Assembly (NCBI GenBank): GCA_023421735.1
Contig: JAEZSP010000051.1
Coordinates: 1-64,000 of the forward strand
Source of the DNA: Bacillota bacterium
GTDB lineage: Bacteria > Bacillota_A > Clostridia > Christensenellales > Aristaeellaceae
DNA: 64,000 nucleotides
Direction: 5' to 3'
Position numbers and translations under genes: made by a program. The notes below the pieces were generated by a model. The model made no database searches. It was given only the letters and a program-made list of their open reading frames with translations, and had not been told where the DNA came from. Below are positions 45,563 to 47,943 of the stretch, in pieces. The first letter of the stretch is position 1. Each line of letters begins with the position of its first letter.

Positions 45563-46612
45563 ATGGCAGAGAATATCCTCGACGTGCGCAATCTGAGGAC
45601 CTATTATCGCACGCGCTTAAAGGAAAACGTATGTGCCGTGGACGGCGTGAGCCTCCAGCTGAAAGAGGGCCGGGTGCTCGGCATCGCCGGTGAGTCCGGA
45701 TGCGGCAAGTCCACGCTGGCACTGTCCCTCATGGGATTTTACTTCCCGCCGCTCAATTATGACGCGGGCGAGCTGGTTCTCGACGGCACGGACATCATGC
45801 AGATTCCCTATGAGACGCTTCGGAAAAATTATCTCGGCACCGAGATCGCCTATATCCCGCAGGCGGCAATGAACGCGCTGAACCAGACGCGCAAGATTTC
45901 CCGTTTCGTGGTTGATATTCTCCGGGAGCACAGGCCGGAGCTCTCGAAAGAGCAGATGCTCAACATGGCGATCGAAAAATTCCGGTTCTTGAATCTTCCG
46001 GAGCGCGTATTGAATGCCTATCCTTCGGAACTGTCGGGGGGCATGAAGCAAAGGACGGTCATCGCGCTCTCCACGCTTTTGAATCCCAAGGTTTTGATCG
46101 CCGACGAGCCGAGCTCGGCGCTCGACGTCACGAGTCAGAAGATCGTCATCACGATGCTGCGGAAGATGATGAACGAGGGTTATGTCAAGTCCATGATCTT
46201 TATCACACACGAACTGCCGCTTCTGCGGCATGTGGCGGACGACATCGTGGTCATGTACGCGGGTGAACTGGTAGAGGAAGGCACAACCGAAGAGGTCATC
46301 TTCGATCCCATGCACCCTTATACGCACGCGCTGATGGGCTCGATCATCGTGCCGGAGGACGGCATGAAGGCGCAAAAGCTTACGGCGATTCCCGGCGCGC
46401 CGCCAAACCTCAAGAGCGTGCCTCCGGGATGCCGCTTCTACGACCGCTGCCAGTATGCCCACGACGAATGCAAGAAGCAGGCGCGACTGGGCATCACGCG
46501 CTTTGGCGAAAACGGATCGCGCTATCATCGCTGCGTCTATTCCGAACAGGAATTGCGCGAGCGCTATGAGATGGAGCGCCGCCAGTTCGCAATCGGGGGT
46601 GCAAAAAAATGA
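45563..46612 (+). CDS. ABC importer ATPase, OppD/DppD type
   Basis: A 349-residue ATPase with Walker A GESGCGKST, signature LSGGMKQRTVIA, Walker B VLIADEPSSALD and H-loop FITHELPLL. The C-terminal oligopeptide-transporter extension is complete: PPGCRFYDRCQYAHDECKKQ holds four cysteines that in homologues bind an iron-sulfur cluster. It overlaps the next gene by four bases (ATGA), so both ATPases are made together. Confidence 0.93.
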   Translation: MAENILDVRNLRTYYRTRLKENVCAVDGVSLQLKEGRVLGIAGESGCGKSTLALSLMGFYFPPLNYDAGELVLDGTDIMQIPYETLRKNYLGTEIAYIPQAAMNALNQTRKISRFVVDILREHRPELSKEQMLNMAIEKFRFLNLPERVLNAYPSELSGGMKQRTVIALSTLLNPKVLIADEPSSALDVTSQKIVITMLRKMMNEGYVKSMIFITHELPLLRHVADDIVVMYAGELVEEGTTEEVIFDPMHPYTHALMGSIIVPEDGMKAQKLTAIPGAPPNLKSVPPGCRFYDRCQYAHDECKKQARLGITRFGENGSRYHRCVYSEQELRERYEMERRQFAIGGAKK

Positions 46613-47943
46613 AGCAGTGGCAAGCATTCTATCGCAGGTACATGCTCCTGAAAAAAGCAACAAAGCTCCTGTCGACCCTTGCAATCGTGATGGTGCTCGC
46701 GTCCCTCCTGTGTTCAATGGTGTATTCGGAGCTTTCAAACGCGTCCGACTATGCGCGCGCACTCCTGACCATTGCCGAGGAAGAATTGGGGGCGGATACC
46801 GGTTACGACGCATCCATGCCGACCTCCGAATTGCCTCGTCTCTACATTGACAACTACGCCGTGCTGAAGGAGGCCGTTCCCTACGCAGAAGCGCGCGAAC
46901 AGGCCGGTGACTTGCTCATTGTGTACTATCCGGTTGCCAAGATCGCCTATTACCTCATGCTCAGTCGCATCTGGTGGCTGTACGTGGCAGCGGGTTCGAT
47001 CGTACTGGCGATCATCGTTGGCCTTTATAACATGACGCAGAAGTTCGACCGCGATGTGAAATGTGAAAAATGCGGCACGGTTTCCAAGGGCAGCGTGATT
47101 GACAAGCGCGCCGGCATTTGCCCGAACTGCGGCAATCACACCTCCGGCGGCATCCTGCTCGAGGCGAAGAAGGTCAACAAGATCTTCGGCGCGGGCAAAA
47201 ACGCCGTTCACGCGGTCAAGGACGTTGATTTCGTGCTCCACAGGGGCGAAATTATCTCCATCGTCGGCGAGTCCGGTTCGGGCAAGACGACGTTTGCGAA
47301 GATCCTGCTTGGCCTGTTGAATGAGACGAGCGGCGAGATCGATTATAACGGCGCGCCGCGCTTTCTCCAGACCCAGCCCATGAAGCGCGCATACTGGCAG
47401 AACATCCAGGCGATCTTCCAGGATCCGTTCTCGACGTTCAACCAGTTCTTCCGCGTGGAAAAAATCCTCAATGACTGCCTGACGCTCCAGGGACTTGGCC
47501 ACCTTCCGACGGAAGAGAAGCGCCAGAAGATGAAGGACGCATGCCAGTTCGTCAACCTGAAGTACGAGGAGCTGTATAACAAGTATCCCTTTGAGCTTTC
47601 AGGTGGGCAGATGCAGAGGCTCATGATCGCGCGCATCTTCATGATGCAGCCAAACGTCCTCATCGCGGATGAGCCGACGAGCATGATCGATGCCTGTTCG
47701 CGCTCCACCATCCTCGATATGCTTCTGAAACTGCGCGACGAGCGCGGGATGACGATCGTTTTCATTACCCACGACCTTGGCCTCGCGTACTACGTGTCCG
47801 ACACGCTCTACATCATGGAGCATGGGCAGATGGTGGAAACGGGCAAGGCGGAAGATTTGATCCTCAACCCCAAGCACCGCTATACCAGGCAACTCGTGGC
47901 GGACGTTCCAAAGCTCAACGAGGAATGGAAACTCGACGCATAG
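46609..47943 (+). CDS. Membrane-anchored zinc-ribbon fusion of OppF/DppF type ATPase
   Basis: A 444-residue protein with a normal OppF-like ATPase preceded by about 180 extra residues. Helix 1 (19-40) and helix 2 (121-142) flank an external loop of about 80 residues. A zinc ribbon follows at 152-174 (CEKC...CPNC). The ATPase has Walker A GESGSGKTT (220-228), signature LSGGQMQRLMIA, Walker B VLIADEPTSMID and H-loop FITHDLGLAYY. It lacks the cysteine-bearing C-terminal extension of its partner. A membrane-tethered, zinc-bearing importer ATPase is not the standard form of the family. Confidence 0.9.
   Translation: MKQWQAFYRRYMLLKKATKLLSTLAIVMVLASLLCSMVYSELSNASDYARALLTIAEEELGADTGYDASMPTSELPRLYIDNYAVLKEAVPYAEAREQAGDLLIVYYPVAKIAYYLMLSRIWWLYVAAGSIVLAIIVGLYNMTQKFDRDVKCEKCGTVSKGSVIDKRAGICPNCGNHTSGGILLEAKKVNKIFGAGKNAVHAVKDVDFVLHRGEIISIVGESGSGKTTFAKILLGLLNETSGEIDYNGAPRFLQTQPMKRAYWQNIQAIFQDPFSTFNQFFRVEKILNDCLTLQGLGHLPTEEKRQKMKDACQFVNLKYEELYNKYPFELSGGQMQRLMIARIFMMQPNVLIADEPTSMIDACSRSTILDMLLKLRDERGMTIVFITHDLGLAYYVSDTLYIMEHGQMVETGKAEDLILNPKHRYTRQLVADVPKLNEEWKLDA

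What the first reader, a model, noticed from the sequence alone, without database searches (positions are those of the whole stretch)
46609..47943. Importer ATPase fused to two membrane helices, an external loop and a zinc ribbon
OppF-type ATPases are soluble peripheral proteins. Here about 180 extra N-terminal residues give helices at 19-40 and 121-142, an external loop of about 80 residues between them, and a CxxC...CxxC ribbon directly before the ATPase. The ATPase would be tethered and could sense something outside or metal or redox state inside. Together with the modified permease it suggests a distinct importer subtype.
Basis: partly seen in the sequence, partly recalled or inferred. Interest (0 to 1): 0.72.

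Follow-up and report, generated by a model that had tools for sequence, protein, structure and literature searches.

The report
Importer ATPase with membrane-spanning N-terminal hairpin
One motor protein of a bacterial nutrient importer, normally a soluble protein under the membrane, here carries an inherited extra domain that probably crosses the membrane twice and shows a piece outside the cell, a new variant of a familiar transporter that may help hold a binding protein which has lost its usual fatty anchor.

Summary
Confirmed and real. The 444-aa OppF homologue has a 182-residue N-terminal domain (NTD): two predicted membrane helices (19-40, 120-142), a 79-residue outer loop and a four-Cys ribbon before an ordinary ATPase. 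The 14 proteins found with this NTD carry it fused to the same ATPase, as does L001; no intact stand-alone copy turned up. In 39 of 39 related operons the gap between OppD and the ATPase is too short for it. The 16 fused proteins form one clade nested among unfused ones (99/92): a single late gain. OppC, whose counterpart pairs with the F subunit in E. coli Dpp (PMC12136057), had already gained a ~200-aa helical insert after its first helix. The operon's binding protein resembles Thermotoga oligosaccharide binders and has no lipobox, like most such proteins in the related genomes G001, G003 and G004. Best reading: the NTD anchors OppF beside OppC, and the outer parts of both help hold a soluble binding protein. 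The anchor is well supported by sequence; the holding role is inference, confounded by lineage. Metal, redox or outside sensing has no positive evidence. New variant of a known kind.

The parts
40979..42793 (+). Binding protein, SBP family 5; Sec signal peptide without lipobox
   Evidence: PF00496 E 7.6e-49; nearest solved chains 2o7i and 4jsd, T. maritima; N-terminus
43021..44079 (+). OppB-type permease (TTG start listed; alignments to relatives begin at residue 7)
   Evidence: PF00528 E 2.8e-39
44083..45558 (+). OppC-type permease, 491 aa, enlarged
44197..44826 (+). Helical outer insert of OppC, about residues 39-248, directly after the first helix (limits approximate)
   Evidence: Alignments; model all helical there
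45563..46612 (+). OppD-type ATPase with a C-terminal four-Cys [4Fe-4S]-type motif (C290, C296, C303, C324)
   Evidence: PF00005 and oligo_HPY PF08352; Cys spacing 6, 7, 21 against 6, 7, 18 in E. coli DppD
46609..47943 (+). OppF-type ATPase fused to the NTD, 444 aa
46663..46728 (+). Predicted membrane helix 1, residues 19-40
   Evidence: (same rule on L001)
46729..46965 (+). Predicted outer part, residues 41-119
   Evidence: charge bias and conservation; short helices in the model
46966..47034 (+). Predicted membrane helix 2, residues 120-142
47062..47130 (+). Four-Cys ribbon, C152, C155, C171, C174
   Evidence: invariant in 16 of 16 rows; weak zinc-ribbon hits
47155..47940 (+). ATPase domain, residues 183-444; no C-terminal Fe-S cysteines (last Cys is 363)

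Best explanation
This is the OppF-type ATPase of a binding-protein-dependent importer of the Opp/Dpp group whose binding protein is of the Thermotoga oligosaccharide-binding kind. In one Clostridia lineage this ATPase gained, once, an N-terminal domain: a membrane hairpin with a small helical outer part, joined to the ATPase by a four-Cys ribbon that acts as a rigid joint. I propose that the hairpin sits beside OppC, the permease half that OppF drives, and anchors an ATPase that lacks the C-terminal Fe-S domain used elsewhere to stabilise the complex; and that its outer part, with the older and larger outer insert of OppC, forms a docking collar that keeps a soluble, non-lipidated binding protein at the surface of a cell without an outer membrane. 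Shown by sequence: the fusion, its conservation and single origin, the OppC insert, the missing lipobox, and no Omp85 found in six related genomes. Inferred: topology in the cell, packing against OppC, zinc binding, cleavage of the signal peptide, holding of the binding protein.
For: Fusion and four cysteines kept in 16 of 16 rows; single origin and no room for the NTD in 39 of 39 plain loci. Positive-inside charges and helices in the model. In E. coli DppBCDF, DppC contacts DppF, DppB contacts DppD, and mutating the Fe-S cysteines breaks up the complex (passages of PMC12136057); here OppC and OppF are the two subunits with outer additions and OppF lacks those cysteines. No lipobox in 5 of 5 readable binding proteins of the OppC-insert clade against a lipobox in 30 of 30 readable Bacillota orthologues with plain OppC. 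No Omp85 hit in G001-G006, hits in the spirochaete G008. Across six genomes, OppC is long in 14 of 17 importers with non-lipidated partners and 0 of 10 with lipidated ones.
Against: Lack of lipobox is genome-wide in the relatives, not special to this importer, and the OppC length contrast largely follows lineage; within G006 alone it is 1 long and 2 short non-lipidated against 1 short lipidated. Long OppC also occurs in the spirochaete G008, which has Omp85 (4 of 9 non-lipidated pairs, and its one lipidated pair). Plain OppF in Paenibacillus and others also lacks the C-terminal Fe-S region without having a hairpin (266-aa ORFs). The anaerolinean and Clostridial sisters have the insert and a non-lipidated binding protein without the NTD, so the NTD is not required. 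No contact between any of these parts was tested.
Confidence: 0.42

Rival explanations
1. The NTD is only a membrane anchor and assembly clamp for an OppF that lacks the Fe-S domain; its outer part merely packs against the permease and has nothing to do with the binding protein.
For: OppF lacks the Fe-S cysteines that hold E. coli DppBCDF together. The outer stretch is short, 78-79 residues in 13 of 15 rows, and its conserved half abuts helix 2, with 14 of 44 positions invariant. Retention of binding proteins must work without an NTD in the unfused sisters.
Against: Plain OppF proteins of about 266 aa also lack the Fe-S region and evidently need no anchor. The outer part grows to 125 and 128 residues in two rows, more than packing would need.
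Confidence: 0.3
2. The NTD is a sensor: the outer part detects a ligand or the binding protein, or the ribbon senses metal or redox, and gates the ATPase.
For: An outer domain linked through a helix and a Cys ribbon to an enzyme is a layout seen in signalling proteins (recalled); the four cysteines are invariant.
Against: No sensor family over cut-off and no confident fold match. CxxCG...CPxCG is the usual form of a structural zinc ribbon (recalled). No regulator or second signalling part was recognised in the operon.
Confidence: 0.12
3. The hairpin keeps the ATPase permanently assembled with its own permease so that other importers of the same cell do not share it (insulation from ATPase exchange).
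For: G001 has 22 family-5 binding proteins with a readable start and at least nine OppC-type permeases, so ATPase cross-talk is conceivable; promiscuous ATPases exist, such as MsmK serving several importers (passages of PMC12838199).
Against: Only this importer of G001 has the NTD (one match), and the operon already has its own OppD and OppF genes.
Confidence: 0.08
4. The long frame is an artefact: two genes joined by a sequencing or assembly error.
For: None found.
Against: Same fusion in 14 other protein clusters and in L001, where 546 bases separate OppD from the ATPase, exactly the NTD.
Confidence: 0.01

Closest known systems
Opp/Dpp importers of E. coli (DppABCDF, OppBCDF) and M. tuberculosis (OppABCD, DppABCD)
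   Same: Gene set, permease core, ATPase family, Fe-S motif on OppD
   Different: OppF has the N-terminal hairpin and ribbon and lacks the Fe-S cysteines; OppC has a large outer insert. In the Dpp structure the outer scoop that enters the binding protein is on DppB, between TM1 and helix 3, not on the C subunit
T. maritima oligosaccharide importer with tmCBP (2o7i, 3i5o, 4jsd, 4jso)
   Same: Closest solved binding proteins (E about 1e-69); of the six ligand-contacting Trp named in PMC3850815 (passages), three (15, 380, 383) align with W39, W432, W435 of the precursor if chain numbers are shifted by 3 (my assumption)
   Different: Two of the other Trp (426, 510) align with P and N and the sixth lies outside the alignment, so the sugar may differ; the subunits of that importer were not compared here
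Same operon in Paenibacillaceae, Bacillaceae, Thermoanaerobacterium and Anaerolineaceae
   Same: Five genes in the same order where the contig shows them; OppF ATPase 55-81% identical
   Different: Plain OppF in 39 of 39 loci; plain OppC and lipidated binding protein in the Bacillota outside the two Clostridial sisters
Importers with the binding domain fused to the permease (GlnPQ)
   Same: Another way of keeping the binding part at a Gram-positive surface (abstract start of PMC8025302)
   Different: Here the binding protein is a separate protein and the added outer parts sit on OppC and on the ATPase

Membership tests
Opp/Dpp-type ABC importer | Binding protein of SBP family 5, two BPD_transp_1 permeases and two ABC ATPases in one operon | tested here: met
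Opp/Dpp-type ABC importer | OppC core fold | tested here: met
Opp/Dpp-type ABC importer | C-terminal four-Cys Fe-S domain on the ATPases (on both in E. coli Dpp, on one or none in M. tuberculosis) | tested here: inconclusive
   Motif on OppD, absent on OppF; the family itself varies (passages of PMC12136057)
Opp/Dpp-type ABC importer | Curated equivalog cut-offs of named subfamilies (NCBIfam) | tested here: not met
   The five subunits score far below every curated cut-off among the rows shown, e.g. OppF 202 bits against 408 and OppD 233 against 575; so it belongs to the group but to no named subfamily
tmCBP-like oligosaccharide importer | Sequence relation of the binding protein to tmCBP | tested here: met
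   E 1.9e-69 over residues 23-575
tmCBP-like oligosaccharide importer | The six Trp that contact laminaribiose | tested here: inconclusive
   Three aligned and kept, two changed, one not covered
tmCBP-like oligosaccharide importer | Binding and import of beta-glucan oligosaccharides | not testable with these tools
   No recurrent sugar enzyme was seen beside the operon in the 20 neighbour genes scanned; one beta-galactosidase in the spirochaete locus L036
Zinc ribbon | Pfam zinc-ribbon model over its cut-off | tested here: not met
   20.4 bits against 27; the four-Cys pattern is kept all the same
Zinc ribbon | Binds zinc | not testable with these tools
   Needs metal analysis
Extracytoplasmic sensor domain | Match to a known sensor family or fold | tested here: inconclusive
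Lipoprotein binding protein | Lipobox Cys at the signal-peptide end | tested here: not met
   None in the window's protein

The most novel reading that the evidence does not exclude
In this branch of Clostridia, whose relatives show no Omp85, importers have largely given up lipid-anchored binding proteins although the lipidation enzymes are present, and instead hold soluble binding proteins by outer domains built into the transporter: large OppC inserts in many importers and, in this one, also a membrane hairpin with an outer domain grown onto the ATPase. An ATPase subunit that takes part in capturing the binding protein from outside would be a new role for that subunit.
Probability: 0.22. Interest if true: 0.78.

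Novelty: new variant of a known kind. Interest (0 to 1): 0.52.

Why it matters
It gives a stepwise gain (plain importer, then OppC insert, then ATPase hairpin) of outer parts in a structurally well-studied importer family, with unfused sisters for comparison. If the holding role is right, it shows how cells without an outer membrane can run importers whose binding proteins are not lipid-anchored, and it makes that testable by removing single domains.

Tried and rejected
Zinc-ribbon-only intermediate in L002: the CxxC flagged lay upstream of the true OppF start; OppF there is plain. Rejected.

Stand-alone NTD. The search admits only proteins of 0.55-1.75 times 444 aa and so cannot show one. The NTD-length profile search (only the 7997 candidates sharing most words were scored) gave one hit, P0016, 142 aa on a 600-base contig, which leaves the NTD pattern after about residue 103; I take it as a broken piece. 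Genome searches gave one strong match, G001 (sets of 9, 308, 391, 147 and 396 genomes, overlapping). At E<=0.001 there were 10 further weak hits (E 7.9e-5 to 9.2e-4: 3, 6, 1); 8 of the 10 cover little but the ribbon end (residues 130-180), one spans 110-177 and one 11-103. I did not follow them. One search used a cut-off of 1e-6 and would not show such hits. In some genomes only 8-10 first-look candidates were scored.

Substrate from neighbours: 20 neighbour genes picked by me from relatives showed no recurrent partner, save ileS and a URO-D gene in the two Leptolinea loci (ileS seen in L005 and L038; URO-D scanned in L038 only). The window also has ileS downstream, at 51203-54598 (by its sequence), behind three other genes; I make nothing of it.

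Lipobox loss as special to this importer: rejected, it is genome-wide in the relatives.

Papers: seven searches. No listing that I saw describes an OppF with an N-terminal membrane hairpin; the most direct search returned 0 papers. Only the held open library was searched. I saw the outline and passages of PMC12136057 and passages of PMC3850815 and PMC12838199; PMC8025302 only as the start of its abstract; all other papers only as listings.

Rows dropped before counts. One search gave 58 loci: L001-L040 used, L050 as outgroup, the other 17 set aside as distant ATPases. L039 is not in the tree (no Walker A in its ORF); L038 and L040 are partial there. L027 and L039 start inside the protein and are not counted; L002, L005 and L016 show no whole binding-protein gene; 45 of 55 rows examined, 42 counted (3 at contig edges); 29 of 51 rows examined, 26 counted (3 at edges); 24 of 26 rows examined; 44 of 51 rows used (7 fragments, OppB-like or weak rows left out); 6 of 33 OppC of the six genomes without a classifiable partner, among them one that I marked doubtful by hand (G001, contig 27). 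A non-lipidated call there means only that no lipobox was found by my rule: at least two of those proteins (G003 contig 208, G004 contig 91) look as if held by an N-terminal membrane helix, and one G006 row (contig 144) has an unclear start.

Full report
What is there. The frame at 46609-47943 is the last gene of a five-gene importer set: binding protein, OppB, OppC, OppD, OppF. OppF is 444 aa; the matching ORFs of 39 unfused loci are 207-320 aa, most of them 266-289, the longest from upstream start codons and the three shortest partial. The start codon overlaps the OppD stop. Between codons 141 and 215 in-frame start codons lie at 142, 150, 163 and 209, none in the linker between ribbon and ATPase; a separate short ATPase is not suggested, though not excluded.

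It is conserved. A search of 5.8 billion proteins with residues 1-185 gave 14 proteins of 442-499 aa, 14 of 14 with the ATP-binding domain. In the alignment of 15, the four ribbon cysteines and 14 of 44 positions of the outer half next to helix 2 are invariant; the ATPase is more conserved (mean pairwise identity 0.91) than the NTD segments (0.47-0.68). L001, an uncultured Clostridiales genome (RUG11247), has the same gene, 50% identical in the NTD and 90% in the ATPase.

It is a late, single gain. The one scan of the genome collection gave 58 loci. L001-L040 are the same operon in Paenibacillaceae, Bacillaceae, Thermoanaerobacterium, a spirochaete, Anaerolineaceae and a few Clostridial MAGs. 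In 39 of 39 loci other than L001 the distance from the last aligned base of OppD to the first ATPase residue is -13 to 253 bases; in L001 it is 546, the length of the NTD. In a tree of 55 ATPase rows (16 fused, 38 plain, 1 outgroup) the fused rows form one group (99/92, in 100% of 200 bootstrap trees); Clostridial MAGs L003 and L004 are sisters (97/88), and with Anaerolineaceae they make a 21-row clade (100/100). NTD profile searches of genomes found a strong match only in G001, the genome of L001, so the NTD is rare among the genomes sampled; the window's own genome is not held.

OppC changed first. OppC of the window, L001, L003, L004, L005 and L038 has a long insert just after the first helix; in the 33 other loci with a full-length OppC ORF it is 278-340 aa by first start codon. 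A search with the insert gave 6 proteins: the window's own and 5 others, one labelled Christensenellales by its source, which with L001 hints at the window's lineage. The model (mean pLDDT 81.2, pTM 0.54) makes the insert helical and the rest an ordinary OppC.

Binding protein. Its nearest solved relatives are T. maritima oligosaccharide binders. It has a Sec-type signal without lipobox; so have L001, L003, L004 and L038 (0 of 5 with a lipobox), while 30 of 30 readable Bacillota orthologues with plain OppC have one; the spirochaete L036 has none. This is a lineage trait. By one simple rule a lipobox is found in 1 of 22 family-5 binding proteins of G001 (that one doubtful), 0 of 6 in G003, 0 of 5 in G004 and 2 of 9 in G006, and in 2 of 4, 0 of 10 and 0 of 12 SBP_bac_8 proteins of G001, G003 and G004. 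Controls: 4 of 4 in G007, 7 of 7 in G009, 1 of 13 in the spirochaete G008. The window's other family-5 binding protein seen (21398-23488) also shows no lipobox in its printed start. Omp85 gave no hit in G001-G006 and hits in G008; Lgt and LspA are present in 8 of 8 genomes asked. Completeness of these genomes is not given, so absence is weaker than presence.

OppC length and lipidation. Pairing OppC frames (stop to stop) with neighbouring binding proteins in G001, G003, G004, G006, G007 and G009: with non-lipidated partners 14 long (350 aa or more) and 3 short; with lipidated partners 0 long and 10 short; 6 unclassified. In G008: 4 long and 5 short non-lipidated, 1 long lipidated, 1 short without partner. 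The Fisher value printed there (3e-5) ignores kinship and is not a test of cause; the spirochaete speaks against a simple rule that long OppC replaces lipid anchors only where there is no outer membrane.

Mechanism. In E. coli Dpp the C subunit contacts F and the B subunit contacts D, mutation of the Fe-S cysteines of D or F breaks up the complex, and Gram-positive binding proteins of such importers are described as membrane-anchored lipoproteins (passages of PMC12136057). In this operon the two subunits with outer additions are C and F, and F lacks the Fe-S cysteines while D keeps them. Hence the reading: an anchor beside OppC (well supported as an anchor, inferred as to place) and, with the OppC insert, a docking collar for a soluble binding protein (inferred). 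Sensing remains possible without positive evidence.

Known or new. By gene content and core folds it belongs to the Opp/Dpp group; it reaches no curated NCBIfam cut-off among the rows shown, and its OppF is a new variant. The seven literature searches named under Tried and rejected showed no description of it.

Noticed in passing
Loci of G001, G003 and G004, among L070-L193: Nearly all readable binding proteins of two families lack a lipobox although Lgt and LspA are present and Omp85 was not found; two look held by an N-terminal membrane helix instead.
   Followed up: partly
L112 9307-11148, L140 8322-9695, L153 7235-8635, L155 5176-7068, L156 11131-12666, L162 2447-3973: Other OppC-type permeases of the same genomes also have large stretches before the core (457-630 aa in all).
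   Followed up: partly
window:48196-50730: Three consecutive ORFs (from 48196, 49136, 49993) look like related multi-span membrane proteins; no Pfam match over cut-off. L001 has a relative of the third behind its operon (34% identity).
   Followed up: no
window:21398-23488: A second family-5 binding protein, followed directly by an alanyl-tRNA-synthetase-type gene (23409-25841) rather than permeases; its start resembles many G001 binding proteins.
   Followed up: no
L003 2604-3791, L004 4836-6020: OppB of the two sister MAGs has an N-terminal stretch of roughly 55 residues not matched in the window's OppB.
   Followed up: no
P0014 and P0012: Two fused proteins have outer stretches of 128 and 125 residues instead of 78-79, one rich in Glu and Ala.
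   Followed up: no
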